From Acutalibacter sp. 1XD8-33 (lineage in GTDB: Bacteria; Bacillota; Clostridia; Oscillospirales; Acutalibacteraceae): 64,000 nt of DNA. The stretch is from the NCBI RefSeq assembly GCF_003612555.1, contig NZ_RAZF01000004.1, forward strand, positions 165,420 through 229,419, in the 5' to 3' direction. Numbering within the stretch: the first letter of the stretch is position 1; every line of letters starts with the position of its first letter. The notes beneath the pieces were generated by a model. It was given only the letters and a program-made list of their open reading frames with translations. It searched no databases and was not told where the DNA came from. A program made the translations under genes and the position numbers. Shown here piece by piece: positions 14,228 through 29,864 of this stretch.

Positions 14228-14492
14228 TTTCCTTTTGGAGTACAGGCAGTAAATCATAAACGCCTTCATACAATTGAAACAATATTGCCGGATTCGGGTT
14301 TGCTTTCAAAACGCGGGAAGGGATGCGGCCGCATCCAGAGACAGAGGCTTTCCATGCGAAACCCGCCTGTTGCCAGGATAACCGATCCTGTTCTCTCTTT
14401 TTAAAGCAATCCCCGGTATTCTGCTATCTATAGCCGGAATTTCCAAGAGCAAGGCTGTGGATACAGGTTCCAAGTATGAAGGAGGGAATGCT

Positions 14493-14840
14493 ATGTTCTT
14501 CTTGCACCTGCTGGATGTCTTTTCCCATATGATCTACCTGATGCTTCACGTTACCGGAGGAAACAGTTTTCCTAAAGCCCTCTCCTCTGCCCAAGAAAAG
14601 AGATGCCTGATGGAAATGTCCCAGGGCAGCGCCGCCGCCCGCCAGGATCTCATTGAACACAATCTCCGCCTGGTAGCTCATATCGTGAAGAAATATTATG
14701 TCAGCGGCAACGACCAGGAAGATCTGATTTCCATCGGCACCATTGGGCTGATCAAAGCCGTTGATACTTTCGATGCGAGCAAGGGAATCCGTCTTTCCAG
14801 TTACGCTTCCAAATGTATTGAAAATGGTATTATCACATGA
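14493..14840 (+). CDS. sigK: sigK, 5' part (pro-sigma-K N-terminal half), interrupted
   Basis: Sigma-K is the late mother-cell sigma factor of sporulation. The first 20 or so residues (MFFLHLLDVFSHMIYLMLHV) form a hydrophobic pro-sequence like that of Bacillus pro-sigma-K. NSFPKALSSAQEKRCLM and IEHNLRLVAHIVKKYY with DLISIGTIGLIKA are sigma region 2. The frame breaks off at KCIENGIIT with a TGA at 14838-14840. The real region 2 ends CIENEILMFFR, and that continuation is at 24381. The ATG at 14493 has AAGGAGG 7 bases upstream. The last true sigK base is within the AAATG core at 14822-14826. Joining 14493-14826 to 24381-24739 gives an open frame of 230 residues, a normal sigma-K length. Confidence 0.92.
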   Translation: MFFLHLLDVFSHMIYLMLHVTGGNSFPKALSSAQEKRCLMEMSQGSAAARQDLIEHNLRLVAHIVKKYYVSGNDQEDLISIGTIGLIKAVDTFDASKGIRLSSYASKCIENGIIT

Positions 14841-14843
14841 CTT
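14822..14843 (+). other. Left attachment site of the skin-like element
   Basis: The core AAATG (14822-14826) is shared with 24376-24380. The element-side arm (GGTATTATCACAT) is an imperfect inverted copy of the right arm (ATGTGAGGATAGC): ATGTGA and ATA align in both. In the joined circle the two arms form a 30-bp near-palindrome whose centre is the dinucleotide AA, as expected for a serine recombinase site with a directional 2-bp overlap. Confidence 0.75.
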
Positions 14844-15399
14844 CCGCTTGGCAGGCAAGAGTGTCCCTGGGGAATGGGCTGTATTTGATGGGCAGGGATG
14901 GGAGGCTTGCGCCGCTGTATGTGCTCTCTTTCCGGCTGGGAAAGGTGCGGAAGGCTTCAGAGGCTCAACGGTATTCCTGCAAGTACGAGGATCTGCACAC
15001 AGTCCCGGAGCGGTTGCGCTGGTGCCGGTACCGGCTGGGGCTGATGCAGAAAGAGGTGGCCCAGCAGCTCGGGATTCCCCTGAGTCAATATGAGGAAATG
15101 GAGCGGGGGTCTTGCCAGGAGTATCCCGCTCAGGCGATGGACAAGCTGGCAGAGTTGTATGGGGTGCCGGTTGAAGACTTGCTGGACGAGTACAGCCGGT
15201 TCCTTTATGACGGGCCAGGTGACCGGATACGGCGCGCTCGGGAGAGATTAGGGCTGAGCCGGAAAGCATTTGCCAAGCTGGTAGGTACTGGGGGAAAATG
15301 CGCGATTGGGAGATGGGACGGAAAAAGGTCAGTAAAAAGAGCTGGGAGAAGCTAAAAGAGTATCTTTCCCCTTTCTATTCCGAGCGTGATGTGCTATAA
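14837..15399 (+). pseudogene. Double-HTH (XRE) protein, frameshifted near its end
   Basis: The ATG overlaps the premature stop of the sigK 5' part (ATGA at 14837-14840), so translation may be coupled to it. Two XRE-type helix-turn-helix units are present: LRWCRYRLGLMQKEVAQQLG with YEEMERG (about residues 60-85) and DRIRRARERLGLSRKAFAKLVG (about 130-151). The frame then runs into TGGKCAIGRW and ends at 15355. One missing G in the GGGGG run near 15292 would restore KMRDWEMGRKKVSKKSWEKLKEY and a stop at 15397-15399, which is the normal end of the second HTH. This may be a real mutation or a homopolymer error. It lies directly before the zeta-toxin gene and could be its antitoxin, as in PezAT. 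Confidence 0.7.
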
Positions 15400-15434
15400 T
15401 TTTAGATAATGAAGCACAAACGGGGGTACACATC

Positions 15435-15992
15435 GTGAAACTATACACCATTATCGGCGGCGTGAATGGCTGTGGCAAGTCCAGCCTTACCGGCGCGCTG
15501 AAAGCGGAGCGTGACGACCTGGGCATCATCATCGACCCGGACAAGCTGTCGGCCAAGTTGGGCGGCTATGGGGCAGGCGGCAGGGCGGCGGTCGAGAAGA
15601 TAAACGAGTGCCTTGAGAAGGGTCTGAACTTTACTCAAGAGACTACCCTTGCCGGAGCGCGGACGGAGCGCACTATCCGGCGGGCTAAGGAGCTGGGCTA
15701 TACCATCCGGCTCTACTATATCGGCCTGGACAGCCTTGAGGAAAGCCTTTCGCGCATTGAGAACCGTGTCAGGAAGGGCGGGCACAATATCCCCCAGCGG
15801 GACGTGGAGCGGCGGTATGCAGGGCGGTTCGATGCTCTTGTGAAGGTGCTGCCCTACTGTGACGAGGCCCGGTTCTTTGACAATGGCAACGGCTTTGTGG
15901 AGGTGGCGCGGTATGAGAACGGGGAACTGCTGGCTATCAACCCAGCTCCTCCTAAATGGCTCACAGAGCTCATGGGCATTTTGTCCGTTTGA
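15435..15992 (+). CDS. Zeta-toxin-family kinase
   Basis: The 185-residue protein has a Walker A site GGVNGCGKSSL (residues 8-18) and the zeta-toxin acidic block IIIDPDKLSAKLGG, followed by NFTQETTLAG and a basic LSRIENRVRKGGHNI segment used as the lid. Zeta/PezT toxins phosphorylate UDP-N-acetylglucosamine and poison wall synthesis; chromosomal relatives also include non-toxic kinases. The start is GTG with a weak GGGGGT RBS. It lies 36 bp after the restored end of the HTH gene, a PezA-PezT-like order. An intrinsic terminator follows. Inside a sigK element it could act as a maintenance module, but that is inference. Confidence 0.75.
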   Translation: MKLYTIIGGVNGCGKSSLTGALKAERDDLGIIIDPDKLSAKLGGYGAGGRAAVEKINECLEKGLNFTQETTLAGARTERTIRRAKELGYTIRLYYIGLDSLEESLSRIENRVRKGGHNIPQRDVERRYAGRFDALVKVLPYCDEARFFDNGNGFVEVARYENGELLAINPAPPKWLTELMGILSV

Positions 15993-16007
15993 TTTGCACA
16001 ATATGAA

Positions 16008-16048
16008 AGTCCCGGAGAGAATCAAAACCTCCGGGACTGTTTTTATTT
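16008..16048 (+). terminator. Terminator of the HTH/zeta unit
   Basis: AGTCCCGGAG (16008-16017) pairs with CTCCGGGACT (16029-16038) and is followed by GTTTTTATTT, a classic intrinsic terminator. Confidence 0.9.
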
Positions 16049-16098
16049 ATATATTTTTTAACAACATAGTTTGTTGGTTTTTTCCTTTTTGGTATAGG

Positions 16099-16335
16099 TC
16101 AACGACCTATTTCACTTTGTTCTTTTGAAATTTGCCGTTCTGTTTTTGCAGTATTAGCTACAGCTTGCATCATCGCGATTTTTTCTTTGACAGAGCTTCT
16201 CGCACTGCTGATTTTATGTATCACTGCCTCCGCATGGGCCTGGGCTACACGCAGGGACAACTGGCGCATTCCTTCCTCGGTCTTGGGGTAGTGCATGACG
16301 AGCTTGATGGGCTGGCTTTTGGGCAAAGGCGGCAC
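16099..16335 (-). CDS. Small protein of a mobilisation region, function unknown
   Basis: The 78-residue product starts MPPLPKSQPIKLVMHYPKTE and continues with a helical, charged body rich in Ala, Gln and Lys. Such small proteins are common beside mobC/relaxase genes in clostridial elements, but I cannot assign a domain. The GTG start is poorly supported, because the GGAG upstream is too close; an internal ATG at codon 14 is possible. It follows mobC on the same strand after 63 bp. Confidence 0.45.
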   Translation of the reverse strand: MPPLPKSQPIKLVMHYPKTEEGMRQLSLRVAQAHAEAVIHKISSARSSVKEKIAMMQAVANTAKTERQISKEQSEIGR

Positions 16336-16398
16336 CTCCGTTTCAGCTACTCATATGTCTGGTGGCTTGTACAATATGCTTGCTAACGGTGGCAAATC

Positions 16399-16752
16399 CT
16401 AACTTTCTTCCTCAAAGTCAACCTTATCCACTTGCCCGATAACAGCCCGCTCAATCCGCTGTAAGGCATCCCGCAGATGCATTACCTCTTCATAGTACCG
16501 CTCCTCGTCAACCAGCCCGGTAGCGTTCGCCATGAACGCAATCTGGTTCATGTTGCCGCCAATCTCTTTTAGCTCCCGGGTCATACCAAAGTAATCAGCG
16601 GGCGGAGCCTCACGGGGGTTGTAGTCGTGAATCAAGAGTCGAATATAGCCTGACCTTGTCAGCCCACATTTGCGAGCTTTGCGGGTAAGCCGCTTGTAGT
16701 CCTGCTCGGTCATCCTCATGTCAAACTTCTTTTGATTGCCTATAAAAATCAT
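16399..16752 (-). CDS. MobC-like plasmid mobilisation (relaxosome) protein
   Basis: The 117-residue protein has a ribbon-helix-helix-like start (FDMRMTEQDYKRLTRKARKCG with SGYIRLLIHDYNP) and the C-terminal helix MTRELKEIGGNMNQIAFMANATG that is diagnostic for MobC/MobA-accessory proteins. It would help a relaxase nick an oriT. No relaxase gene is seen on either side, so this is a leftover of a mobilisable element inside the skin-like element. The RBS is weak. The 278 bp before it (16753-17030) hold no gene, only short palindromes such as GGCCCCTACGGGGCC. Confidence 0.75.
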   Translation of the reverse strand: MIFIGNQKKFDMRMTEQDYKRLTRKARKCGLTRSGYIRLLIHDYNPREAPPADYFGMTRELKEIGGNMNQIAFMANATGLVDEERYYEEVMHLRDALQRIERAVIGQVDKVDFEEES

Positions 16753-17030
16753 CCTTTCTATTATGTTATAACTCTAAAAATCGGGGTTACAGGGTTCTCC
16801 CTGTCCAAGCTGCATTGTCCGCACACGTGTCCGCACGGGTGTCTGGACAAATGCGATGCTGGCTCGTTCCGAAACCTCGAAAACTCTCGTTTTCAAAACT
16901 CTGGCCCCTACGGGGCCATTTCTACCGCCAAGGCTCTTGCGTGTTCCAGGTGTTCCAGCGAAATATAGGGGTAAAAATATTTGCTTTCGCGTGGGAGGGT
17001 ATGTTTTTGCCTGGAACACTCGGAACACCG

Positions 17031-18353
17031 TCATGTTTGCTGAAAGTAAAGGCCGCCCATTTTAAGCTGTATGCCACAGAACATGGCTGTCGGATTGACG
17101 GCTTTTCCGGCACCTGTTGGCTGCTTTTTTCTGATTTGAGCATACCCTTCCATACCCTGTTTGAATGTGGGGTAAGCATCCGCGTACTGACCGTTTTGCG
17201 TACACCAGTCCCGGTATTCACGGTAAACATCTTCGGTTCTGACTTCACCGTCTGGGTCGGGCGTGAGCATTTCCTCAACGAATCTTGTCAGCTTGTCGCT
17301 GTCATGCTGATACTTTGCGGTAGCATTTTGCACCGATTCCGGCGGCTCAAACCCTGTTTCCTGCATGAGCCAAAGACCATCCAGACACCAATTCAACACG
17401 CCGGGCAGCTCATTTTCCAAGCGTTTTTTGAGGGTTTTATCCTGTTCTTCCGGCGAAAAATGCCGGTTAAACGGCAAGACTTTCACCCTTCCCGAGCTGA
17501 AAACCGTCACGTCATTTGCTTTTGGCAGGTGATTTGTGTTGATGAAAAGTTTGAACTTGGGCTTGAACTCGAAGCTGTTTTCGTTGAGAAACCGGGTGAT
17601 CATGGTGTCGTTGCCGGTCAGTGTCTTCACCAAAGCCGCGCTCAAAACCATCTACTTGTCCGGCTCTGAGATGTTCACAGCCCTGGCTCCGGCCAGCTTT
17701 GCTATGTCCTCCGAGGGCCCGGAGCTGTTGTAGTTCTGCCGCAGGGCTATGGTTTCGGGCCGTGCCGCCTTGCCGTAGCCCAGGGCCTTTTGGAGGTAAG
17801 CGGCAAGGTCAAAATCGCCCAGCATAACGTCCTTGATGGTGCGCTCCCACAGTTCTGAGCGGGCCTCCGGGTCGTACTTCACGCCGGAAATTGTTGCCAG
17901 CATATCGGCAGGGTTGTGTTCATGGAACACCATCGTTTGTAAATCCAGCGTGCCATTTGTGCAGTTGAACAAGTCTGGCTTGCTATCAAAGTCGCTGAGT
18001 TTTTCCGGGTAAATGCCCATCGCGTCTTTCAGAATTATCTCCCGGTAGTGGCGAATCTGCCACCGCTCCACGGCCTTGCGGTACTCGTTGCGTTCGCGGC
18101 CCTCGGGTAGGGAGAGGGCATAAATCACCAGCTCATCCGCAAGTTTTTTACATAGCTCCATGACTTGGAGGTTGCAGGGGTCCGGCTCCCAGGGCTTGCC
18201 GGTGAAGATGCACCACATCTTCCGCTCGGGGACGTAGCGGGCGACGTCGCGGTAATAATCGGCGAACAGATTGCTGTTGCCGATGTCGGTCGTTGTGTAT
18301 CGGGAGTTAGCTTCAGGCACGAATTTAACCAGACAGTTAGAGAAATTTGTCAT
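17031..18353 (-). pseudogene. Phage/plasmid DNA primase-helicase (D5/P4 type), deleted and interrupted
   Basis: The N-terminal part (ATG 18353, AAGGAGG upstream) has the D5-N block DIGNSNLFADYYRDVARYVPE, LFNCTNGTLDLQTM and SGVKYDPEAR. It then passes from LQKALGY straight to GKAARPETIA; the Walker A segment (FILYGATTRNGKGT in relatives) is deleted. The frame reaches EPDK and hits TAG at 17652-17654, and the same frame goes on with MVLSAALVKTLTGND to 17031, carrying SSGRVKVLPFNRHF and ILNWCLDGL. Two independent lesions, a loss of the ATP site and an in-frame nonsense codon, make it inactive. It was once the replication gene of a plasmid-like or phage-like element. Confidence 0.85.
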
Positions 18354-18514
18354 CGCTTCACCCCCTCCTTTGCCTTCTCCCAGGCCTTTTTCTCCCAATA
18401 GCGGCGGTTCATCTCCCTCACTTTATCGGGATTTTTCTTGCGCCATTGGCGCTGGTACTCTCGCTGGGCCTCACGCGCCAGCTCTTGAATGGCTTTTGTT
18501 TCTGCTGTAGAAAT
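18350..18514 (-). CDS. Small basic phage-type protein upstream of the primase, start damaged or non-canonical
   Basis: The minus-strand frame reads TAETKAIQELAREAQREYQ, QRQWRKKNPDKV and NRRYWEKKAWEKAKEG and stops with TGA overlapping the primase ATG (ATGA), so the two were translationally coupled. Similar short basic proteins precede primases in clostridial phage-like elements. A GGAGG is present just upstream, but the only codons at the right distance are ATT or ACA, so the ATG seems to have been lost. It is too short for a gene call by length. Confidence 0.45.
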   Translation of the reverse strand: MSTAETKAIQELAREAQREYQRQWRKKNPDKVREMNRRYWEKKAWEKAKEGVKR

Positions 18515-18534
18515 TCCTCCTTTGTGATAGCCGC

Positions 18535-18577
18535 TTGACAGTGGCTGTATTTCTTGCTATACTCAGTATATAGCAAG
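18535..18577 (+). promoter_or_regulatory. Promoter and self-operator of the XRE regulator
   Basis: TTGACA (18535-18540) and TATACT (18558-18563) are 17 bp apart. The inverted repeat CTTGCTATA (18553-18561) / TATAGCAAG (18569-18577), with a 7-nt centre, covers the -10 box, the usual place for binding of a lambda-like repressor to its own promoter. The primase unit diverges to the left, so it may control both sides. Confidence 0.65.
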
Positions 18578-18655
18578 AAAAAGATAAAGCCAATGTTTCT
18601 TTCTACATTTACAAAATCGCAAGAAAATCGCACACTACAAAAGGAGGTAGATTTC

Positions 18656-19294
18656 TTGTCAGACAAATATAATGACATATTCCCAACCCGGCTCAGACAG
18701 CTAATTGAAGAAAAACCTACTACCATCACAGCGGTTGCAAGGGAGCTGGGTATATCACGACAGGCAGTTAGCCAATACACCATGGGTATAGGACAGCCGA
18801 ACGCTGACAAGCTGCTGCAAATAGCAGAGTATTTCGATGTGTCCTGTGACTGGCTGGTGGGGCGGCAGGGCGGGGCCAAGAGCCTTGATATGGATTTGGC
18901 TGGGGTGTGTAAGTTTCTCAATATGAGCGAGGAAAGTGTTGCGTTTTTGCGAGAATTTGGAGAATTTTCAAAAGACTATCCCGGAACATTGGGCGCGCTC
19001 TTTGCCAGTGAGGAGTTCCGTGAGGTTATGAAAAGTATGCTGAGATACCGCTTCAGCCTGGAAGTACAGAAGATTGCCGAGGGCAAAAAAATGGAAAGAA
19101 GAGAGAAAAACAAATTGCTGAACGCCGTTTTCATTGAACACTTTCTCGCTACAAACAGCCTGGGGAATGTTATTCGAGATTGGGAAACTGAAATAATAGG
19201 AGAGAAGAAAAGCGTTTCTGATAGTATCTACGAAACACTAAAAGCTGAGCAAGATAAAGACTCTGAGCTAAAACCGTCATTTTGTCGGTTTTAG
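18656..19294 (+). CDS. XRE-family repressor
   Basis: The 212-residue protein has an N-terminal HTH (RLRQLIEEKPTTITAVARE, then GISRQAVSQYTMGIGQPNADK, about residues 11-50) and the linker FDVSCDWLVG that is typical of phage-type XRE repressors. The rest is a helical domain of unknown function. The TTG start is chosen because AAAGGAGG lies 8 bases upstream. The frame is open earlier but overlaps the promoter/operator. It probably represses itself through the palindrome at 18553-18577. It is convergent with nothing and ends in a hairpin. Confidence 0.8.
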   Translation: MSDKYNDIFPTRLRQLIEEKPTTITAVARELGISRQAVSQYTMGIGQPNADKLLQIAEYFDVSCDWLVGRQGGAKSLDMDLAGVCKFLNMSEESVAFLREFGEFSKDYPGTLGALFASEEFREVMKSMLRYRFSLEVQKIAEGKKMERREKNKLLNAVFIEHFLATNSLGNVIRDWETEIIGEKKSVSDSIYETLKAEQDKDSELKPSFCRF

Positions 19295-19295
19295 A

Positions 19296-19322
19296 ACGTG
19301 ACGGAAATAATTTCCGTCACGT
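19296..19322 (+). terminator. Hairpin after the XRE regulator
   Basis: ACGTGACGGAAA (19296-19307) and TTTCCGTCACGT (19311-19322) form a perfect 12-bp stem with a 3-nt loop starting 2 bases after the stop codon. No U-tract follows, so it may be a weak terminator or an operator. The 370 bp after it hold no gene; GCGGACAAAATGTCCGTGA near 19470 is another short hairpin. Confidence 0.55.
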
Positions 19323-19550
19323 CAAGACAGTAATTTGCTCAGCGATAAAAAGTCGTTGACCAGAACAGCAATTTGTCGTTTTGATTTTGCGGGGTGGTGG
19401 TTGCGGATTACGCCACCACCAGAAAACAACGTGGGCGAAACTGTTTCGGCGACGTTGCAACAAAATGGTCGCGGACAAAATGTCCGTGACCATCCTTACA
19501 GAATATTTTGTGTCTATAAGTTCATTTTCCCTCAAATCCCCATTGCGTAA

Positions 19551-19579
19551 TTGAAATATCTCTGCGAATATGGTATAAT
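19551..19579 (+). promoter_or_regulatory. Promoter of the kinase-ASCH cassette
   Basis: TTGAAA (19551-19556) and TATAAT (19574-19579) are 17 bp apart, with a 113-nt leader before the kinase gene. Confidence 0.65.
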
Positions 19580-19692
19580 TACTTATAAATAGTGCAGTTT
19601 GTGTCGAACACCTATTCTCACTATAGACAAAGCGATATAATTTGATAAAATGAAACTATAATGTCATTACAATAAAAAAGAGAGGACAGAAA

Positions 19693-20238
19693 ATGGAAAC
19701 TATTTTTATCGCAGGAGTTTATGGCGTAGGAAAGAGTACCTTGTGTAGGTCGTTAGGCAATTCCTTAAACATTCCATCTTTCTCTGCTGGAGATTTAATA
19801 AGCAAGATAAATGGCGAAGATTACAAACAAAGCAAGGCCGTAAAGGATGCGGTATACAATCAAGAAGTACTTGTTTCTGAGGTCGAACTAAAACTGAAAA
19901 AGCATCCAATAATTTTGCTTGCGGGACATTTTTGCATTTTTAATGAACAGAATCATGTTGAGGTGTTGCCATATGGGGTGTTTGAAAAGCTACATATAAA
20001 ACAAATACTGCTTTTGGACGCTGATACAAACCAGATAATTAGCAATTTACTGTCAAGGGATAAGAAATTCTACGACTATGAACAGGTTGTATGCCTGCAA
20101 AAAGAAGAACAAACTGTTGCTAGACATATTGCGAATCTCATAGAGTGTCCGCTTGATGTCCATTATATGTCTTATGACGCAAACGATTCAGCGCATTGCG
20201 TTTCTATACTTACGAAAAACGGCATCATTTTTGATTGA
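19693..20238 (+). CDS. P-loop kinase-like ATPase
   Basis: The 181-residue protein starts with a Walker A motif (FIAGVYGVGKSTL, residues 5-17), continues with IILLAGHFCIF as a probable Walker B strand and has an adenylate-kinase-like layout with a LSRDKKFYDYE lid region. Such small AAA-18-type kinases act on nucleotides or other small molecules; the substrate is unknown. AGAGGA precedes the ATG. It is the first gene of an AT-rich unit with the ASCH gene 33 bp downstream. Base composition is clearly lower in GC than the chromosome, so it is imported cargo of the skin-like element. Confidence 0.7.
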   Translation: METIFIAGVYGVGKSTLCRSLGNSLNIPSFSAGDLISKINGEDYKQSKAVKDAVYNQEVLVSEVELKLKKHPIILLAGHFCIFNEQNHVEVLPYGVFEKLHIKQILLLDADTNQIISNLLSRDKKFYDYEQVVCLQKEEQTVARHIANLIECPLDVHYMSYDANDSAHCVSILTKNGIIFD

Positions 20239-20271
20239 AAACTTATATCACTATTCGACGGAGGTACATGC

Positions 20272-20682
20272 GTGACAGCTATTCTTATATCGATCAAGCC
20301 TAAATACATTGAGAAGATATTATCTGGCGAGAAAACATATGAATACCGCAGAAAAATGGCTCGTAAGAAACCCTCCATAATGATTATCTATTGTACTGCT
20401 CCTGTCAGTAAAGTAATTGCATATACGAAGATCATCAGCCAATTAAGCGCTTCTCCAGATGCTTTATGGAACATGACTAAATCAGGTGCAGGAATCAGTT
20501 ATGATGAATACATGAGATACTTTTCCAATTCTAAGATAGCATACGCATATGAGATTGGAGAAGTAATAAAATTCAATTGTCCCAGGGAACTTCTGGATTA
20601 TGGCATAGATCATGCGCCGCAATCATTTATATACATCAATACTGACCATGAAATCTGTGTGCCGAACTGTGATAGGCTATGA
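20272..20682 (+). CDS. ASCH-domain protein
   Basis: ILISIKPKYIEKILSGEKTYEYRRKM (residues 4-29) is the first strand and loop of an ASCH domain, a PUA-like fold that binds RNA or nucleotides and in some proteins hydrolyses N4-acetylcytidine or similar. The rest (SKIAYAYEIGEVIKF) fits the beta barrel. The GTG start has GGAGGTAC 9 bases upstream. It sits between the kinase-like gene and a membrane-anchored protein with 10 bp to the latter, so the three are probably one operon. Confidence 0.72.
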   Translation: MTAILISIKPKYIEKILSGEKTYEYRRKMARKKPSIMIIYCTAPVSKVIAYTKIISQLSASPDALWNMTKSGAGISYDEYMRYFSNSKIAYAYEIGEVIKFNCPRELLDYGIDHAPQSFIYINTDHEICVPNCDRL

Positions 20683-20692
20683 GGTGAGAATA

Positions 20693-21754
20693 ATGGAGAG
20701 TTTTGCGTTTTGGTATAAAGAACGCGAGAATGAATCTGGTGTATCTGTGTCAGATGAGTCTGGTGAATTGGCTGCGCATGTGCATTTCAATTTATGGTGT
20801 GAATGTGGTTGGAAAAAAGAGAAGGAACACTTACAAGGCACTGATTACCCGTATTTGGATATTGGATTCCGGGTGAAGAGACTTTCAAAAGCACAGGCAT
20901 TATTTTTCTTCCTGCCTTTTTCTATAACTGAAGCGAAAAAAATGCAATGTATCGAGGATCTTGGGAGAAAATTTCTTGAAAACGCTTTGCTGGCTGATGC
21001 TCTATTCAATGATAGCCATCACGTTACGATTTCTGCTAACAAGAAAGAAATTGATGTGCGCTGTACATCGAAGGATGATCATTTTAAAATCTATCAATTG
21101 GATATCGTAAATGACATAAGTCTCGAAGCCTTTGGTGAAGGAACCATACTCGAGATAAAAACAGGTCGTATACTAAGTAATATGGATGAATCTGAGCAGG
21201 AATCGGACTACTATTTCCGATTTCGCATAAAAAACCAACCCCTTGATTTTCTGATTCATCGATATAAGCCGCCGACCGGAGTCATCCAAGGGCTATTTAA
21301 TACTACATATATGATTGATTTTCGTTACCATAACATTCGCGGACTTCATAATACTCTCGTCGAGCGTTTCCACGAAAAACTGAATCATCCCGTTCCGGTT
21401 CAACAACTTCATTTCTTCTTAATGACGAAGGCATACGTCGATGTATCCAACACAAATTTCAAAGTCAGGAAAATCGAACAAGATGTTTGGAAAGACTATG
21501 TTGATGGGCTTGATACAGAAGATTTGGTGGCCTACCATTATGCTGACAAACCCAAGACAGAGAGTAACTCGAAATATATCGATTCCAGTGAACTTTTCGC
21601 TAAATTCAGAGTTGAGCAGCAGGTTATATGGCGGTATGTTCTTATTACTCTCGGACTTGGTGCAGTGGGATCACTCTTAGGAAGTAGTATTTTGGCGTTG
21701 AAAGACATTATTTGGCAACTGATTTGCAAATTTCTCTTGACACCGCCTACCTAA
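20693..21754 (+). CDS. Unrecognised protein with a single C-terminal membrane anchor
   Basis: I do not recognise this 353-residue protein. It is mostly soluble, with mixed beta/alpha character and no obvious catalytic motif. Near the end, VIWRYVLITLGLGAVGSLLG (about residues 314-333) is a membrane segment, followed by a second hydrophobic stretch to the C-terminus, so the bulk would face the cytoplasm as a tail-anchored protein. The ATG at 20693 is preceded by GAGGTGAG. The ORF is open further upstream but overlaps the ASCH gene. It is AT-rich like its two operon partners. A role as a membrane effector is a guess. Confidence 0.6.
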   Translation: MESFAFWYKERENESGVSVSDESGELAAHVHFNLWCECGWKKEKEHLQGTDYPYLDIGFRVKRLSKAQALFFFLPFSITEAKKMQCIEDLGRKFLENALLADALFNDSHHVTISANKKEIDVRCTSKDDHFKIYQLDIVNDISLEAFGEGTILEIKTGRILSNMDESEQESDYYFRFRIKNQPLDFLIHRYKPPTGVIQGLFNTTYMIDFRYHNIRGLHNTLVERFHEKLNHPVPVQQLHFFLMTKAYVDVSNTNFKVRKIEQDVWKDYVDGLDTEDLVAYHYADKPKTESNSKYIDSSELFAKFRVEQQVIWRYVLITLGLGAVGSLLGSSILALKDIIWQLICKFLLTPPT

Positions 21755-21776
21755 AAGCATATAATATATTACCTTC

Positions 21777-21805
21777 TTGACAATATTGGCTCAACTGTGT
21801 ATAAT
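21777..21805 (+). promoter_or_regulatory. Strong promoter of the GNAT gene
   Basis: Perfect TTGACA (21777-21782) and TATAAT (21800-21805) are spaced 17 bp, with a 26-nt leader to the ATG and AAGGGAGG as the RBS. Confidence 0.85.
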
Positions 21806-21830
21806 GTAATATGGAAGGGAGGCTCTACTT

Positions 21831-22379
21831 ATGGACAATATAACTATCCAGCAACTTAGAAAAGTTGACTCGGATTCAGTTCGGATGGTTGGTACTTCCT
21901 TGGCTTTTCTGCGGGACGATTATCCTGGTTTTGGACACTGGTATAATCAGACAGTTGTTCCTTCCATTGGAGACAATCGGATGGTTTTCTTTGCGTCGCC
22001 TCAAGGCGACTGCAATCGTTTGGCTGGTGCAATGATATTGAAGAAGACTTTCTATGAAAAAAAGATTTGCACATTATACATTCCTGACGACTTCCGTGGA
22101 CGCGGTATTGGTACGGCGTTTATGAAGAAAGCAATCATAACACTAGGTGACAGACATCCCGTCATTACGGTTTCAGAGCCGCGAGTAACTGAGTTTGATT
22201 CTTTCCTACAGCGATTTGGTTTCAAGTTGTATGACAGCTATAGTGGGTATTATCGTTCTGGTTTTCACGAGTTATCATATAATGGCCCTATCGAGCCATT
22301 GGAGTGTAACCCCAAAAAGGTCGTCTACTATTTTATGCCTGGATTCATTTCACAAGTGCCTTCTGTCACTTGTTGTTAA
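21831..22379 (+). CDS. GNAT N-acetyltransferase
   Basis: The 182-residue protein carries the GNAT acetyl-CoA site ICTLYIPDDFRGRGIGTAFMKKA (about residues 79-101, the R/Q-x-x-G-x-G/A motif) and a C-terminal FLQRFGFKLYDSYSGYY block. The substrate is unknown; toxin-type, antibiotic-modifying and protein acetyltransferases share this fold. It has its own consensus promoter and a strong terminator, so it is expressed independently within the skin-like element, beside the kinase-ASCH cassette. It is AT-rich. Confidence 0.8.
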   Translation: MDNITIQQLRKVDSDSVRMVGTSLAFLRDDYPGFGHWYNQTVVPSIGDNRMVFFASPQGDCNRLAGAMILKKTFYEKKICTLYIPDDFRGRGIGTAFMKKAIITLGDRHPVITVSEPRVTEFDSFLQRFGFKLYDSYSGYYRSGFHELSYNGPIEPLECNPKKVVYYFMPGFISQVPSVTCC

Positions 22380-22384
22380 GAGAC

Positions 22385-22428
22385 AAGAAGAGAACCATCT
22401 TTGGTTTCAAGGATGGTTCTCTTCTTTT
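22385..22428 (+). terminator. Terminator of the GNAT gene
   Basis: AAGAAGAGAACCATC (22385-22399) pairs with GATGGTTCTCTTCTT (22412-22426) over 15 bp and is followed by TT. The 260 bp between it and the recombinase hold a TATACT (22656-22661) as a possible -10 but no gene. Confidence 0.85.
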
Positions 22429-22695
22429 GGCAAAAACGATGGCAATAGAAATGCAAGCGCACGCTAAAAAAATATTGAGCATACTAAAAGGTAAATCTGA
22501 GCGCTCAAGACTTCTAGCGAAGAGATTTAGCACCTCCGTAATCCGGGTATCTTCCTTCGAAATACAGTGTGGATAGTTGATGTTCTATATTTCTTTCTGT
22601 TATAAGGTGGTAAAATTTTTTCCAATTTATTCTGTACTCCTCCGCTACTCTATGCTATACTATACCAAAACACCTATCATGAAGGAGCCCCCACC

Positions 22696-24381
22696 ATGCC
22701 AACCGCCATCTACTCCCGCAAATCCAAATTCACAGGCAAAGGCGAAAGCATCGGCAACCAGATCGACCTCTGCCGCGAATACATCGCACTGCACTCCGGC
22801 GAGGAAACCGCCCGCACCGCCCTAATCTTCGAGGACGAGGGCTTCTCCGGCGGCAACCTAAACCGCCCGGCCTTCCAGCAGATGCTGAAAGCCGCCCGCA
22901 ACCACGAGATCAGCGCCATCGTGGTCTACCGCCTTGACCGTATCAGCCGCAACATCAGCGACTTCTCGGCGCTCATTGAGGAGCTGAGCCGCTTGAATGT
23001 GGCCTTCATCTCCATTCGGGAGCAGTTCGACACCGGCAGCCCCATGGGCCGGGCCATGATGTACATCGCCTCGGTGTTCTCTCAGCTGGAGCGGGAGACC
23101 ATCGCCGAGCGCATCCGGGACAACATGCACGAGCTGGCAAAGACAGGCCGCTGGCTGGGGGGCAACACCCCCACCGGCTACGCCTCCGAGAGCGTCCAGA
23201 CTGTCACGGTGGACGGCAAGGCACGCAAAGCCTGCAAGCTCCGGCTTATCCCGGAGGAGGCCGGACTGGTCAAGGAAATTTTCGCTCTCTACGCCGAGAG
23301 CGACTCCCTCTCCAAAACCGAGGCTGAGCTTCGCCGCCAGAATGTCAAGACCAAGACGGGCCGGGACTTCACCCGGTTCGCTGTCAAGAATATCCTGCAA
23401 AACCCGGTCTACCTGCTGGCCGACCAGGAGGCATACCAATATTTCACAGAGAACGAGGCTGAGCTGTTCTCTCCTCCCGCCGACTTTGACGGCCTCCACG
23501 GTATTCTCGCCTACAACCGCACTGACCAGGAGAAGGGCCGGGCCACTGTCTACCTGCCGGTCAAGGAGTGGATTGTCACCGTGGGCCAGCATGAGGGGCT
23601 GATACCGGGCCGCGAGTGGGTGAAGGTGCAGGCGAGCCTGGAGCAGAACCGCTCCAAGTCCTACCGCAAGCCCAGGAGCAACCAGGCCCTCCTTACCGGC
23701 CTGCTGTTCTGCTCCTGCGGCAGCCGGATGTACCCCAAGACCTCCAAGCGGCTGGGTGCGGACGGTCAGCCCCTTTACACCTACATCTGCAAGCGCAAGG
23801 AGCACAGCCAGGGGAGCCAATGCGCCCAGAAAAACCTCAGCGGCAACCGGCTTGACGCCGCTGTTATTGAGGAAATCAAGGGGCTTACTGAGGACAAAGC
23901 GGCATTTCTCAGCCAGCTTGAAAAAAGCAAGAGCTTCTACTCCGGCGATCGCACCGGCTATGATGAACAGTTAGCCGGTCTACGCAAGGAGTGTGCCGAC
24001 GTTGAAAGCAAGCTCACCGCGCTGATTGATTCCCTTGCGGGGCTGGACAGTGCTACAGCCAAAAATCAGGTAGCAAAGCGCATAGATGAACTGAGCGGGC
24101 AGCAGGAAACCCTCCAAGCCCGGATAACCGAGCTGGAGGGCCTGACGGCTCAAAATGAGCTGAGTGCCGAAGAATTTGACATACTCGTTCAAATGCTTGC
24201 CAGCTTCCGCACCACCATAGACCTGCTGTCTATAGAGGAAAAACGCGCCGCCATCCGCACCGTGGTACAGAAGGTGATTTGGGACGGGGAAGCCGCCCAT
24301 GTGGTGCTGTTCGGGGCAGAGGGCGATGTTGACTATACCACTATCCCAGATTTGACTCTCTTATGTGAGGATAGCAAATGA
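22696..24381 (+). CDS. Serine recombinase of the sigK element (SpoIVCA-type)
   Basis: This is the expected excisionase of the skin-like element. The resolvase domain begins at once (AIYSRKSKFTGKGESI; YxRxS with Ser10) and has VVYRLDRISRN, FDTGSPMGRAMMYIASVFSQ and LERETIAERIRDN. A recombinase domain (about residues 150-260), a zinc ribbon (LFCSCGSRMYPKTSK, then YICKRKEHSQGSQCAQKN) and a coiled coil (about 425-500) follow. GAAGGAG precedes the ATG. Its stop TGA (24379-24381) is made of the last two element bases and the first base of the sigK 3' part, so the gene ends exactly at the junction. In the excised circle it would lose the stop. Known relatives are expressed in the mother cell; no clear sigma-E promoter could be set here. 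Confidence 0.9.
   Translation: MPTAIYSRKSKFTGKGESIGNQIDLCREYIALHSGEETARTALIFEDEGFSGGNLNRPAFQQMLKAARNHEISAIVVYRLDRISRNISDFSALIEELSRLNVAFISIREQFDTGSPMGRAMMYIASVFSQLERETIAERIRDNMHELAKTGRWLGGNTPTGYASESVQTVTVDGKARKACKLRLIPEEAGLVKEIFALYAESDSLSKTEAELRRQNVKTKTGRDFTRFAVKNILQNPVYLLADQEAYQYFTENEAELFSPPADFDGLHGILAYNRTDQEKGRATVYLPVKEWIVTVGQHEGLIPGREWVKVQASLEQNRSKSYRKPRSNQALLTGLLFCSCGSRMYPKTSKRLGADGQPLYTYICKRKEHSQGSQCAQKNLSGNRLDAAVIEEIKGLTEDKAAFLSQLEKSKSFYSGDRTGYDEQLAGLRKECADVESKLTALIDSLAGLDSATAKNQVAKRIDELSGQQETLQARITELEGLTAQNELSAEEFDILVQMLASFRTTIDLLSIEEKRAAIRTVVQKVIWDGEAAHVVLFGAEGDVDYTTIPDLTLLCEDSK
24363..24380 (+). other. Right attachment site of the skin-like element
   Basis: ATGTGAGGATAGC (24363-24375) followed by the core AAATG (24376-24380), then sigK sequence (AAATCCTG). 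Recombination with the left core gives TGTATTGAAAATGAAATCC, which reads CIENEI in the sigK frame. Confidence 0.75.
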
Positions 24382-24739
24382 AATCCTGATGTTCTTCCGT
24401 TCTGGGAAAAAGTCCGCTCAGGATGTATCCATCAACGAGCCCATTGACTCTGACAAGGATGGCAATGCCCTGACCCTGATGGATACCATGGCTGTGGACG
24501 ACACGGTGATTGACGATATTGATATCCGTATGAAAAGCGAAAAGCTCTATGACTATCTTCCTGTTCTGGAGCCCAGGGAGCGCAGCGTAATCTGCATGCG
24601 CTACGGCCTGGGAGGGCGCAAGCCGCTGGCCCAGCGGGAAGTAGCGGGAAAACTGGGGATCTCCCGTTCCTATGTGTCCCGTATTGAAAAACGCGCTTTG
24701 GAAAAATTACGGGTGCAATTTGAAACCGGGGATACTTGA
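24381..24739 (+). CDS. sigK: sigK, 3' part (regions 3-4 of sigma-K), interrupted
   Basis: This fragment begins at EILMFFRSGKKSAQDVSI, the exact continuation of the 5' part, and contains sigma region 4: RERSVICMRYGLG, then KLGISRSYVSRIEKRALEKL, the helix-turn-helix that reads the -35 box. It ends at 24739. There is no own ribosome-binding site at the junction; a GTG at 24365 in the same frame lies inside the recombinase gene. It is functional only after the element has been removed. The match of ISRSYVSRIEKRAL with sigma-K/sigma-E family members and the hydrophobic pro-sequence in the 5' part identify it as sigma-K and not sigma-E. Confidence 0.92.
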
Positions 24740-26979: not shown

Positions 26980-28380
26980 ATGGTATTTAGTTCACCGGCG
27001 TTTCTTTTCGCCTTTCTTCCCGTTACTTTCTTGCTCTCCCGGCTGATTCCCCACCGCACCGCCCAAAACGCCCTACTGGCGGTCCTGAGTCTGGTGTTTT
27101 ATGCTTTTGGGGAGCCTGTCTATGTACTGCTGCTCCTGGGCTCTGTGGGGATAAACTATCTCTCCGGCGTGCTCCTTTGCTCCCGGCTGAACAAAAAGGC
27201 GGTACTGGCCGCAGCCGTTCTGTTGAATCTTGGGATCCTCTGCGTTTTTAAATATGCTGACTTTGCCGTGGATACGTTGAACCGGCTGGGGCTTTCCTTG
27301 CCTCAGCCGGGCATTGCTTTGCCCATTGGGATCTCCTTTTTCACTTTCCAGGGCCTGTCCTATCTCATCGACTGCTACCGGGACCGGTCGCTTGTGAGCC
27401 GCAGCTTTTTGAAGCTCACCCTATATATCGCGTTTTTCCCTCAGCTCATCGCCGGGCCCATTGTGAAATACCACCAGGTTTCCCAGCAGATTGACCATCG
27501 GGAGATGTACCCCGCCCTCACTGCGGACGGCATCCGCCGGTTTATTCTGGGTCTGGGGAAGAAGCTCCTGCTGTCGAACACACTGGGGCAGATGGCCGAT
27601 CTGGTTTTTCTGGCATCTCCCGCCCAGCTGGACGCCCGCTCCGCCTGGCTGGGCGCATTCTGCTATATGCTGCAAATCTACTTTGACTTTTCCGGTTATT
27701 CGGATATGGCCATCGGACTGGGGCGGATGTTTGGCTTCCAATTTGAAGAAAACTTCCGTTATCCCTATGCCAGCGGGTCCATCAAGGAGTTCTGGCGGCG
27801 GTGGCATATCTCCCTGTCCTCCTGGTTTCGGGATTACCTCTACATCCCCCTGGGCGGCAACCGGAAAGGCCGCTTCCGCACAGAGCTGAACAAGTGCCTG
27901 GTATTCTTCTGCACCGGCCTGTGGCATGGGGCTTCTTGGAGCTTTGTGCTCTGGGGTCTCTGGCATGGATTTTTCATTATTCTGGAGGACCTCCTGCCTC
28001 CGCCAGGGAAACTTCGCCGGATTTTGTGGAGGCCTGTTACCTTGCTGGCCGTGCTGCTGGGCTTTGTGCTCTTCCGGGCGGATTCCCTCCCAGTGGCGGG
28101 AACAGTTTACAGCGCCATGGCCGGGACTCTTCCTGTAACCCTGGAAAGTGCCGCGCTATTGCGGGCTCTGCTCAGCCCTCTGAATATTCTCATCCTTGTG
28201 GCCGCGTGCTTCTGCGCCCTGCCCCTGCTGCCCCGGATCAAGGCTTTCGCCTCGGGAGAGAGCGCTGGGGCCTCCGTCCTGCGGATTGCCTCCTATGGGG
28301 CCGCGATAGGGATTTTCCTGCTGTGCGTGCTGAACCTGTCCTCTACTCAGTTTAACCCCTTCATCTATTTCCGCTTTTGA
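26980..28380 (+). CDS. MBOAT-family membrane O-acyltransferase (AlgI/DltB-like)
   Basis: The 466-residue protein is a multi-pass membrane enzyme (about 10 hydrophobic segments). The MBOAT signatures are intact: SIKEFWRRWHISLSSWFRDY and IPLGGNRKGRFRTELNK (about residues 267-305), and the active-site His in GLWHGASWSFVLWGLWHG (about 311-328). AlgI-type enzymes bring acyl groups across the membrane for transfer to extracellular polysaccharides; DltB does so for teichoic acid D-alanine. The DHHW gene immediately after is the usual partner. The acceptor polymer is not identifiable here. The start ATG is 3 bp after the lipoprotein stop. Confidence 0.9.
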   Translation: MVFSSPAFLFAFLPVTFLLSRLIPHRTAQNALLAVLSLVFYAFGEPVYVLLLLGSVGINYLSGVLLCSRLNKKAVLAAAVLLNLGILCVFKYADFAVDTLNRLGLSLPQPGIALPIGISFFTFQGLSYLIDCYRDRSLVSRSFLKLTLYIAFFPQLIAGPIVKYHQVSQQIDHREMYPALTADGIRRFILGLGKKLLLSNTLGQMADLVFLASPAQLDARSAWLGAFCYMLQIYFDFSGYSDMAIGLGRMFGFQFEENFRYPYASGSIKEFWRRWHISLSSWFRDYLYIPLGGNRKGRFRTELNKCLVFFCTGLWHGASWSFVLWGLWHGFFIILEDLLPPPGKLRRILWRPVTLLAVLLGFVLFRADSLPVAGTVYSAMAGTLPVTLESAALLRALLSPLNILILVAACFCALPLLPRIKAFASGESAGASVLRIASYGAAIGIFLLCVLNLSSTQFNPFIYFRF

Positions 28381-28388
28381 GGTAGCCT

Positions 28389-29864
28389 ATGAAAAAAACA
28401 TTCCACCTGCTGTTTGTGATCCTTTTTTTCGGGGCCTGCCTGATTCCAGGATTGGGGCTTCTCCTCAACGGCCCCAGCCCTGCCGCCGCCAATGAAACCG
28501 CTGTCCGCGCCCCCAGCTTTGTCAATCCGGACGGCAGCCTCAATCTGAACCTGCTCTCCGACGCTGCGGACTGGTTCTCCCACAGCTATGGTTTCCGCCG
28601 GGAGTTGATTACAGCCGACTCCGCCTGGAAGGCCGGCCTGTTCCGGAGCTCTACCCAGCCTCTGGTGGCCCTGGGGAAAGAGGGCTGGCTCTATTATGCC
28701 GAAACCCTGGACGACTACACCGGCGCGGACTCCCTCTCTCCCCGGCAGACCTGGTGTATCGCCCGTTCCCTGAAGCTGGCTCAGGACTACGTCCAAAGCC
28801 AGGGAGCGGCGTTTGTGTTTACAGTTGCGCCGAACAAAGCCTCCATTTACCCAGAATATCTCCCGGATGGGCTCAGCCCCGCCCCCTCGGAGTATTCCGC
28901 CCCGCTGGCAGAGGTGCTCCAGGAACAGGACGTCCAATATGCCAGCCTGTTTGAACCCTTGCGGACCATGAGCGGGAGGTCAGAGCAATCGCGCTCTCTA
29001 AATGGCGAGCCCCTATATTTTGCCCTGGACTCCCACTGGACCAACCGGGGAGCCGCCCTGGCCCACGATGTCCTGCTGGAGGCCTTGGGGCTTCCCTCTG
29101 AGGACGCCTTTGGCAAGGCGGGAGGCTATCAGCCCAGCCATCTAGGCGACTTATATGAGATGCTCTATCCTGCCTCTCTCCGGCTGGATCTGGAGTTTGC
29201 CTTTGATCCGCCCTTGGATTTCCAGTACGCCAGACCCATTCGGGATGTAGACGATCTGACCATTGAAACCGCCAGCGCCTCAGAGAACGGTCCCCTGCTT
29301 ATGTTCCGGGACTCCTTCGGCAACGCCCTGCATAGCCTGATGGCAGAGAGCTTTTCCACCGCCCTCTTCTCCCGGGCCATGCCCTACAATTTGGAGCGCA
29401 TGGAAAGCATAGGGACGGAATATGTGGTGGTAGAGATTGTGGAGCGGAATCTGCCTCTCTTGGCAGAAGGCGCTTTCCTTTTCCCCGCGCCGGAGGTGGA
29501 CCTGTTCCAGCCTCCCTGGGGGAATACGCGGCTGTTCCAGGGAGAGCGCTGGCCGGCGGAGTCCCCCCTGGCCATAGAGAGAGCCGGGGCCTATAATAGA
29601 ATCACTGCCAGCGCGGACATTCCCTGCGACTTGGACTCCCCGGTCTATCTGATCCATATGCCCGCTGCCGGAGGTTCGGTCACCGCCTGGGAGGCTCTGC
29701 CTCTGTATCAGGAAGATGGTGCTCGGGCTGCCTGCACTGCCTGTCTCCCCACCGACCGGCTTCCCGAGGGCACCCTCTATATGGCCTTTCAACAGGAGGG
29801 AAAATGGCAGATGACCTATTGGGAAGAACCGTTTCCCGGCCCGGCTCCCAGCGGGGAGGGTTGA
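28389..29864 (+). CDS. DHHW-family protein, extracytoplasmic partner of the MBOAT enzyme
   Basis: An N-terminal signal anchor (TFHLLFVILFFGACLIPGLGLL) is followed by an SGNH/AlgX-like domain. LDSHWTNRGAALAHDVLLEA (about residues 212-231) contains the catalytic Asp/His pair, MFRDSFGNALHSLMA carries the Ser block (about 305), and PNKASIYPEYLPDGL is the typical early block. The probable role is to transfer acyl groups delivered by the MBOAT protein to a polymer outside the membrane. It starts 8 bp after the MBOAT stop. The length of 491 residues fits. The order SLH protein, lipoprotein, MBOAT, DHHW suggests a cell-surface acylation unit. Confidence 0.85.
   Translation: MKKTFHLLFVILFFGACLIPGLGLLLNGPSPAAANETAVRAPSFVNPDGSLNLNLLSDAADWFSHSYGFRRELITADSAWKAGLFRSSTQPLVALGKEGWLYYAETLDDYTGADSLSPRQTWCIARSLKLAQDYVQSQGAAFVFTVAPNKASIYPEYLPDGLSPAPSEYSAPLAEVLQEQDVQYASLFEPLRTMSGRSEQSRSLNGEPLYFALDSHWTNRGAALAHDVLLEALGLPSEDAFGKAGGYQPSHLGDLYEMLYPASLRLDLEFAFDPPLDFQYARPIRDVDDLTIETASASENGPLLMFRDSFGNALHSLMAESFSTALFSRAMPYNLERMESIGTEYVVVEIVERNLPLLAEGAFLFPAPEVDLFQPPWGNTRLFQGERWPAESPLAIERAGAYNRITASADIPCDLDSPVYLIHMPAAGGSVTAWEALPLYQEDGARAACTACLPTDRLPEGTLYMAFQQEGKWQMTYWEEPFPGPAPSGEG

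What the first reader, a model, noticed from the sequence alone, without database searches (positions are those of the whole stretch)
14493..24739. sigK is split by a 9.6-kb skin-like element carrying its own serine recombinase
The 5' part ends CIEN, the 3' part starts EILM, and a shared AAATG core allows exact joining to a 230-residue pro-sigma-K with hydrophobic pro-sequence. The recombinase ends at the right junction, with its stop codon partly made of sigK. The site in sigK is the one used by known sigK-intervening elements, so excision in the mother cell is likely to control late sporulation. The element seems to be an undescribed, compact example with its own cargo.
Basis: partly seen in the sequence, partly recalled or inferred. 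Interest (0 to 1): 0.93.

Follow-up and report, generated by a model that had tools for sequence, protein, structure and literature searches.

The report
Mobile element splitting a sporulation gene
In a relative of the gut bacterium Acutalibacter, a 9.6-kb mobile element splits sigK, the gene for a late spore-making switch protein, and carries its own recombinase, which is predicted to cut the element out and rejoin the gene in the cell that builds the spore; close relatives of that recombinase sit beside sigK in many other Clostridia.

Summary
sigK is split after codon 111 by a 9,554-bp element bounded by an AAATG core (14822-14826 and 24376-24380). Joining the halves gives a 230-residue pro-sigma-K that scores like intact sigK of the genus; no other sigK was found in the genome. 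The recombinase is intact, and its TGA stop is completed by sigK's own GAA codon; that overlap recurs in 50 of 80 related loci. It moves between species: its DNA is 91-95% identical to one in a species whose sigE is only 76% identical. I add a control hypothesis: the first element gene (ORF1, tandem Xre helix-turn-helix) follows the sigK 5' half in 8 of 8 strong class-wide hits (window included), so it is likely transcribed from sigK's sigma-E-type promoter and would time excision. In this genus the elements carry different defence-like cargo. Excision is untested; ORF1 is C-terminally frameshifted here and absent from many relatives, so its role is inferred. A new variant of the known skin kind. 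A different serine recombinase splits sigK at another site in sister species.

The parts
14240..14275 (+). sigma-E-type promoter of sigK (consensus by recall): GTACAGGCAG, then CATACAATT starting 27 nt later
   Evidence: 25 of 26 upstream regions carry a CATA box within 140 nt (all but the window, whose box lies further up); in 21 the best partner box starts 27 nt upstream, but five of those 21 partners match at only 5-6 of 10 positions
14493..14840 (+). sigK 5' half (pro-sequence and region 2), ends CIEN then GIIT*
14822..14826 (+). attL core AAATG
14837..15355 (+). ORF1, 172 aa, tandem Xre helix-turn-helix; its ATG overlaps the sigK' stop (ATGA); C-terminal end frameshifted relative to relatives
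   Evidence: fold of a relative
15435..15992 (+). zeta-toxin-like P-loop protein, 185 aa
   Evidence: Pfam PF06414 E 1e-9
16099..16335 (-). small 78-aa protein conserved in the genus elements; rival directionality-factor candidate
   Evidence: no Pfam match
16399..16752 (-). NikA/MbpA-like mobilisation protein
17031..18398 (-). P4-type primase/helicase, broken by an in-frame stop and an internal deletion
   Evidence: a 477-aa unbroken homologue in G003
18554..19294 (+). phage-type repressor (helix-turn-helix), 246 aa
19693..20238 (+). AAA_17 kinase-like cargo
   Evidence: PADLOC VakA E 1e-7
20272..20682 (+). ASCH-domain cargo matching PDC-M11B (E 1.5e-40)
20693..21754 (+). 353-aa protein of unknown family
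21831..22379 (+). GNAT acetyltransferase cargo, partial match to PDC-M11A
22651..22661 (+). sigma-A-like extended -10 (TATGCTATACT) upstream of the recombinase, by eye
22696..24381 (+). large serine recombinase, 561 aa; stop TGA completed by sigK
24376..24380 (+). attR core AAATG
24380..24739 (+). sigK 3' half (EILMFFRS... to stop)

Best explanation
This is a 9.55-kb mobile element of the skin kind that splits sigK and carries its own large serine recombinase, which is predicted to excise it in the sporulating mother cell by recombining the two AAATG-core sites, leaving an uninterrupted pro-sigma-K gene. Shown: the split, the core sites, the intact recombinase, no second sigK in the genome search, and movement of the element between species. 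Inferred: the recombinase is made constitutively from a sigma-A-like promoter and alone would only integrate. The switch to excision is likely set by ORF1, the first element gene, which lies directly behind the truncated sigK and would be transcribed from sigK's own sigma-E-type promoter, so that the gene being interrupted times its own repair. ORF1 may act as the directionality factor itself or switch one on. The forespore copy would keep the element and pass it on.
For: Joined sigK scores within the range of intact relatives. No other sigK found. Purifying selection, window against G020/G003/G008: recombinase Ka/Ks 0.13-0.14; sigK 3' half 0.03-0.10; ORF1 0.14-0.24 (Ks of the sigK 5' half is saturated in those pairs). 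70 of the 80 loci kept (best of 500) have the sigK 3' half within 400 nt downstream of the recombinase, same strand. In a tree of 140 recombinases one clade (support 1.0) has 92 of 103 beside sigK; a group of 3 has 2; the other side of the midpoint root has 0 of 34. The recombinase stop overlaps the sigK codon identically in 50 of 80 loci. ORF1: 8 of 8 strong hits (E below 1e-20, the window's own included) among 391 class genomes begin 0-62 nt behind a sigK 5' half, and one public protein (P0145) fuses sigK' in frame to ORF1. Sigma-E-type promoter at 14240-14275; a spoIIID gene, slightly under the model's cut-off. Six public recombinase clusters end ...EDSKWYYNMTSA, that is, right end joined to left end. 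Horizontal movement.
Against: No excision data. The right-end/left-end pattern is in 0 of 29 genus assemblies (exact pattern, which would miss some variants). ORF1 is frameshifted near its C-terminus in this window, damaged in several relatives, and not recognised in 9 of 14 loci outside the genus where the left end is visible. Of the 16 class genomes with the recombinase that were in both samples, 7 (window included) have a strong ORF1. Against its nearest relative G001, ORF1 Ka/Ks is 0.51 on few changes. ORF1's best folds are repressors and no hit reaches E 0.001. In L040, L132 and L193 the recombinase end faces the sigK 5' half in the opposite direction; there a left-end gene could not be read from sigK. 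A 78-aa gene is an equally possible directionality factor. 18 of 29 species have intact sigK, so the element is not needed.
Confidence: 0.58

Rival explanations
1. The element is an ordinary mobile element that merely uses sigK as its attachment site; excision is sporadic and not timed by sporulation, and ORF1 is a repressor unrelated to directionality.
For: Mobilisation, primase and repressor genes; recent transfer between species; ORF1 and the second helix-turn-helix resemble phage repressors; ORF1 decays in several relatives.
Against: The sigK 3' half stays under strong selection, which suggests regular rejoining at sporulation; ORF1 lies behind sigK' in 8 of 8 strong hits.
Confidence: 0.22
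2. Same skin-like mechanism, but the directionality factor is the 78-aa gene at 16099-16335 or another small gene, not ORF1.
For: Conserved in the other four genus elements with both ends sequenced, even the divergent G012; known factors are small: 64 aa Skr (PMC6957869) and 72 aa CD1234 (PMC5025042).
Against: Opposite strand, next to mobilisation genes; no sporulation-type promoter was looked for there; by recollection related small proteins occur in unrelated transposons.
Confidence: 0.25
3. The element is stuck: sigK is permanently broken and this strain cannot finish sporulation.
For: Primase broken, ORF1 frameshifted; no circle junction in the assembly.
Against: Recombinase, both cores, sigK halves and sigK promoter are intact; right-end/left-end joins exist in public proteins about 96% identical to this recombinase.
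Confidence: 0.1

Closest known systems
skin element of Clostridioides difficile (CD1231 recombinase, CD1234 directionality factor)
   Same: Interrupts sigK; large serine recombinase gene immediately upstream of the 3' half of sigK; recombinase promoter of sigma-A type there (PMC5025042, passages read) and, by eye, here.
   Different: There sigma-K has no pro-sequence and CD1234 is controlled by sigma-E and SpoIIID; here a hydrophobic pro-region is present and the candidate switch gene lies behind sigK's promoter. Sequence relation of the recombinases not tested.
skin element of Bacillus subtilis (SpoIVCA, Skr)
   Same: Splits sigK with a five-nucleotide core; serine recombinase; pro-sequence on sigma-K.
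   Different: 48-kb prophage-like region; the 64-aa Skr gene overlaps the start of spoIVCA behind a sigma-E promoter (PMC6957869, PMC13141910, PMC5025042, passages read). Here a 9.6-kb element with mobilisation and defence-like genes.
sigK prophages of Alicyclobacillus (MMB025) and Clostridium perfringens (phiS63)
   Same: Integrate in sigK (PMC13141910, passages read; phiS63 only through citations).
   Different: Those form infectious phage; no phage structural gene appeared among the window proteins scanned.
22-kb sigK insertion of Bacillus cereus biovar anthracis
   Same: Insertion in sigK reported as excised (PMC10745906, start of abstract in a search listing only).
   Different: Not compared in sequence; longer.
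gin (gerE), yin (yabG) and SP-beta (spsM) intervening elements
   Same: Elements that split other sporulation genes and are excised (PMC5595907 and PMC4191935: start of abstract in listings; PMC10747680 passages).
   Different: Other target genes, other cargo.

Membership tests
sigK-intervening (skin) elements | sigK split into two halves that rejoin exactly | tested here: met
sigK-intervening (skin) elements | no other functional sigK in the genome | tested here: met
   (106-contig assembly, 99.98% complete)
sigK-intervening (skin) elements | own site-specific serine recombinase, intact | tested here: met
sigK-intervening (skin) elements | short shared core at both junctions | tested here: met
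   AAATG
sigK-intervening (skin) elements | excision as a circle in the mother cell during sporulation | not testable with these tools
   needs PCR or reads from sporulating cells; one search found no circle junction in assemblies
sigK-intervening (skin) elements | directionality factor under mother-cell control | tested here: inconclusive
   ORF1 behind the sigK promoter but function unknown; rival 78-aa gene
large serine recombinases | Resolvase + Recombinase + zinc-ribbon domains | tested here: met
   PF00239, PF07508, PF13408 over cut-off
integrative mobilisable elements | relaxase gene | tested here: not met
   only a NikA/MbpA-like accessory protein among the window proteins scanned
prophages | structural or packaging genes | tested here: not met
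   none among the window proteins scanned (Pfam and NCBIfam; PHROGs on 6 proteins)
candidate defence system PDC-M11 | both M11A and M11B present | tested here: inconclusive
   M11B E 1.5e-40; M11A only a partial match, E 8e-7

The most novel reading that the evidence does not exclude
A widespread family of sigK-splitting elements in Clostridia is timed by the gene it breaks: a dedicated regulator read from the sigK promoter triggers excision in the mother cell. In one genus these elements act as swappable phage-defence islands that the dying mother cell discards and the spore keeps.
Probability: 0.32. Interest if true: 0.86.

Novelty: new variant of a known kind. Interest (0 to 1): 0.72.

Why it matters
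[quoted passage not shown] Here one recombinase clade lies beside sigK in dozens of named records, among them Lachnospiraceae, Oscillospiraceae, Faecalibacterium, Gemmiger and Holdemania, and was found in 19 of 393 sampled class genomes, the window's own included, at E 1e-130. The position of ORF1 gives a directly testable answer to how such an element could be cell-type specific without its own sporulation promoter. The genus, with intact sigK and two insertion sites, is a natural comparison set for what interruption of sigK does.

Tried and rejected
Rejected: 'the sigma-E promoter is lost in the window'. The first 140 nt upstream of sigK have no CATA box, but reading further up showed an intact one at 14240-14275.

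Rejected: P0055 (736 aa) as a recombinase-ORF1 fusion on the circle. Its tail is the reverse strand of a sigK 5' half (by eye), like L040.

Rejected: a small overlapping frame at the recombinase start as a Skr-like gene; by eye it does not look conserved as a protein. L110 first looked like a recombinase-only element, but its sigK 3' half is not next to the recombinase.

Led nowhere or little: the family-wide sigK search of 200 genomes cut its list before any split genes; of 41 viral-contig loci only 4 had a sigK match; the circle pattern was in 0 of 29 genus genomes. Defence cargo as a general rule for the clade was not supported: of 10 proteins scanned from loci outside the genus (of 40 listed), none looked like a known defence gene by its Pfam match; they were a permease, shikimate enzymes, PTS, ADP-ribosylglycohydrolase, ATPases, a CBS transporter and a recombinase. 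PADLOC was not run on them.

Literature: no paper describing this element or this recombinase clade was seen in the listings (open-licence PMC only).

I lowered the mechanism's confidence from 0.60 to 0.58 and the novel case from 0.33 to 0.32 for the ORF1 counts.
Full report
What is there. The window lies in G000:C50 (3.62 Mb, 106 contigs). Its genus includes G008, whose contig C21 has the same length (585,383) as the Acutalibacter sp. 1XD8-36 record of L038. sigK begins at 14493 and runs in frame to codon 111 (AAT), where the element starts; the rest of sigK continues at 24380. Both junctions contain AAATG (14822-14826 and 24376-24380). The joined gene encodes 230 residues and scores 435 bits against a profile built from 14 intact genus sigK proteins, which themselves score 425-477; the own sigE scores 200 (the script extracted 14 of the 18 intact loci). 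The genome-wide SigK search (E 0.001) lists the two halves and other sigma-factor stretches; the single full-length hit is taken as sigE, beside a spoIIGA-like gene (that gene name is by recall).

How common. In the genus, 29 genomes were searched. sigK is intact in 18. It is split at this place with both halves present in 5 (G000, G003, G008, G012, G020); G001 has the 5' half followed by ORF1. It is split near codon 64 in 3 (G014, G006, G017), and G005 shows only the 3' part of that split. None was found in G023. The search for related loci found 500 recombinase relatives in genome contigs and kept the best 80 (two of these are the records of G008 and G020). Of the 80, 70 have the sigK 3' half within 400 nt downstream on the same strand. 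The other 10: it is 1.4-4.5 kb away in 3 (L076, L086, L117); 2 end near the recombinase (L041, with a partial match, and L090); 3 show only a sigK 5' half (L040 inverted, L102, L110); 2 show neither (L108, L114). In a class sample of 393 genomes, 19 (window included) carry the recombinase at E 1e-130 or better; 16 of 19 have the sigK 3' half downstream (L192 at 1.2 kb), L193 has an inverted 5' half, L200 and L202 have neither. In a midpoint-rooted tree of 140 recombinases a clade with support 1.0 holds 103, of which 92 are within 700 nt of a sigK half; a group of 3 has 2; the other side of the root has 0 of 34. Two of 142 sequences (L133, L162) were dropped before the tree as too short.

The shared stop codon. 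The recombinase reads ...GAG GAT AGC AAA TGA, in which AAATG is the core and the final GA belongs to sigK's GAA/GAG codon. The same overlap at the same offset occurs in 50 of 80 loci, and 97 of the 120 listed public proteins end in K after S, R, N, C or G, as this overlap gives. On the excised circle the frame would run on into the left end: it is open into ORF1 in 4 of 5 genus elements with both ends known (window, G003, G008, G012; G020 stops earlier, by eye). Public clusters P0004, P0005, P0008, P0016, P0045 and P0051 end ...EDSKWYYNMTSA, which fits this right-end/left-end junction; P0005 stands for 109 contigs, longest 164 kb, and is named A. muris. Whether these are free circles or tandem copies cannot be told. 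The exact junction pattern is in 0 of 29 genus assemblies.

att sites. Left ends outside the genus commonly read AAAT|GCTATCCTCTCAC, and right ends GTGAGGATAGC|AAAT, so attP is nearly an inverted repeat. In G008 the shared core shrinks to AAA, which points to AA as the crossover dinucleotide (inference).

Mobility. Between window and G020 the element is 95.0% and 90.6% identical in blocks of 6.9 and 3.1 kb: recombinase Ks 0.29; kinase, ASCH and 353-aa cargo at most 0.03; GNAT 0.10. The sigK 5' half has saturated Ks and the 3' half Ks 1.5. By sigE, G020 is sister to G008 (97.3%) and far from the window (75.6%), yet the G008 element matches the window's only in parts and at 77-82%. The element therefore crossed species.

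Control. The sigK promoter box GTACAGGCAG with CATACAATT 27 nt on lies at 14240-14275. In 25 of 26 upstream regions scanned a CATA box lies within 140 nt of sigK (the window's is further up); in 21 the best partner box starts 27 nt upstream, five of these matching at only 5-6 of 10 positions, and four have another spacing. It resembles a sigma-E promoter with a SpoIIID-like box (consensus by recall). The recombinase has a sigma-A-like extended -10 (by eye). ORF1 is the first gene after sigK'. In the window, G001, G008 and G020 its ATG overlaps the sigK' stop. In a 391-genome class sample all 8 strong ORF1 hits (E below 1e-20; window included) begin within 62 nt of a sigK 5' half; five weaker hits (E 1e-12 to 1e-16) do not, though one, L178, lies beside a sigK 3' half on the other strand. 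Seven of the 8 genomes also carry the recombinase; the eighth, G530 (80% complete), was outside that sample. Conversely, 7 of the 16 recombinase genomes that were in both samples have a strong ORF1 (handles up to G588; G650, G663 and G665 appear only). P0145 fuses sigK' to ORF1. The model of P0126 with a 32-sequence ORF1 alignment (pLDDT 83) is mostly helical and matches repressor helix-turn-helix folds; the best PDB hit is SinR at E 3e-3, and Pfam finds two helix-turn-helix stretches. I therefore propose ORF1 as the mother-cell-timed switch. Against this: the window's own ORF1 is frameshifted near its end; outside the genus it is recognisable in 5 of 14 loci with a visible left end (one of the 5 by eye) and damaged in these (by eye); known factors are small proteins (PMC6957869, PMC5025042); and a 78-aa gene is also conserved.

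Cargo. The window and G020 carry a kinase, an ASCH protein matching PDC-M11B, a 353-aa unknown and a GNAT protein with a partial PDC-M11A match. G003 carries a type II methyltransferase, a GmrSD-like restriction enzyme and PDC-M49A/B. G008 carries a type III methyltransferase/helicase pair and a weak TIR-effector match. G012 carries a cytosine methylase-Vsr fusion and a UvrD helicase, a family that is not specific to defence (10 cargo proteins of these three were scanned, one only in part). The four distinct genus elements with both ends known thus all hold defence-like genes; ten proteins scanned from loci outside the genus do not show this as a rule.

A second site. In G014, G006 and G017 a different large serine recombinase (Pfam; no match to the window's at E 1e-10) lies against the left end on the opposite strand.

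Literature. Passages read: PMC5025042, PMC6957869, PMC10747680, PMC13141910, PMC11913394. Start of abstract in listings only: PMC5595907, PMC4191935, PMC10745906. PMC3442830 was not held.

Noticed in passing
L124 (G014), L125 (G006), L126 (G017), L127 (G005): A second class of sigK element: sigK is split near codon 64 by 5-11 kb insertions whose 542-551 aa large serine recombinase lies on the opposite strand against the left end; G005 shows only the 3' part.
   Followed up: partly
L042, L058, L064, L072, L079, L080, L101: Gemmiger and Faecalibacterium records, genera usually regarded as non-spore-forming (recalled), also carry the recombinase next to a sigK-like 3' half.
   Followed up: no
L040, L132, L193; protein P0055: The recombinase end faces the sigK 5' half in the opposite direction, as if the element had entered inverted; the near-palindromic attP may allow it.
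   Followed up: partly
L081:3945-7927: Chorismate synthase, shikimate kinase and EPSP synthase genes lie between the sigK 5' half and the recombinase.
   Followed up: no
protein P0145: Public 314-aa protein fusing the sigK 5' half in frame to ORF1.
   Followed up: no
G204:C8:18186-18854 and 27813-28481: Two full-length sigK-like genes with identical scores in opposite orientation 9 kb apart.
   Followed up: no
protein P0040: A recombinase cluster ending ...EDSKSDICVARR: a junction that looks like neither sigK nor the element's left end.
   Followed up: no
window 20693-21754: 353-aa protein with 72 database matches (itself included) and no significant Pfam, NCBIfam, PHROGs or PADLOC family.
   Followed up: no
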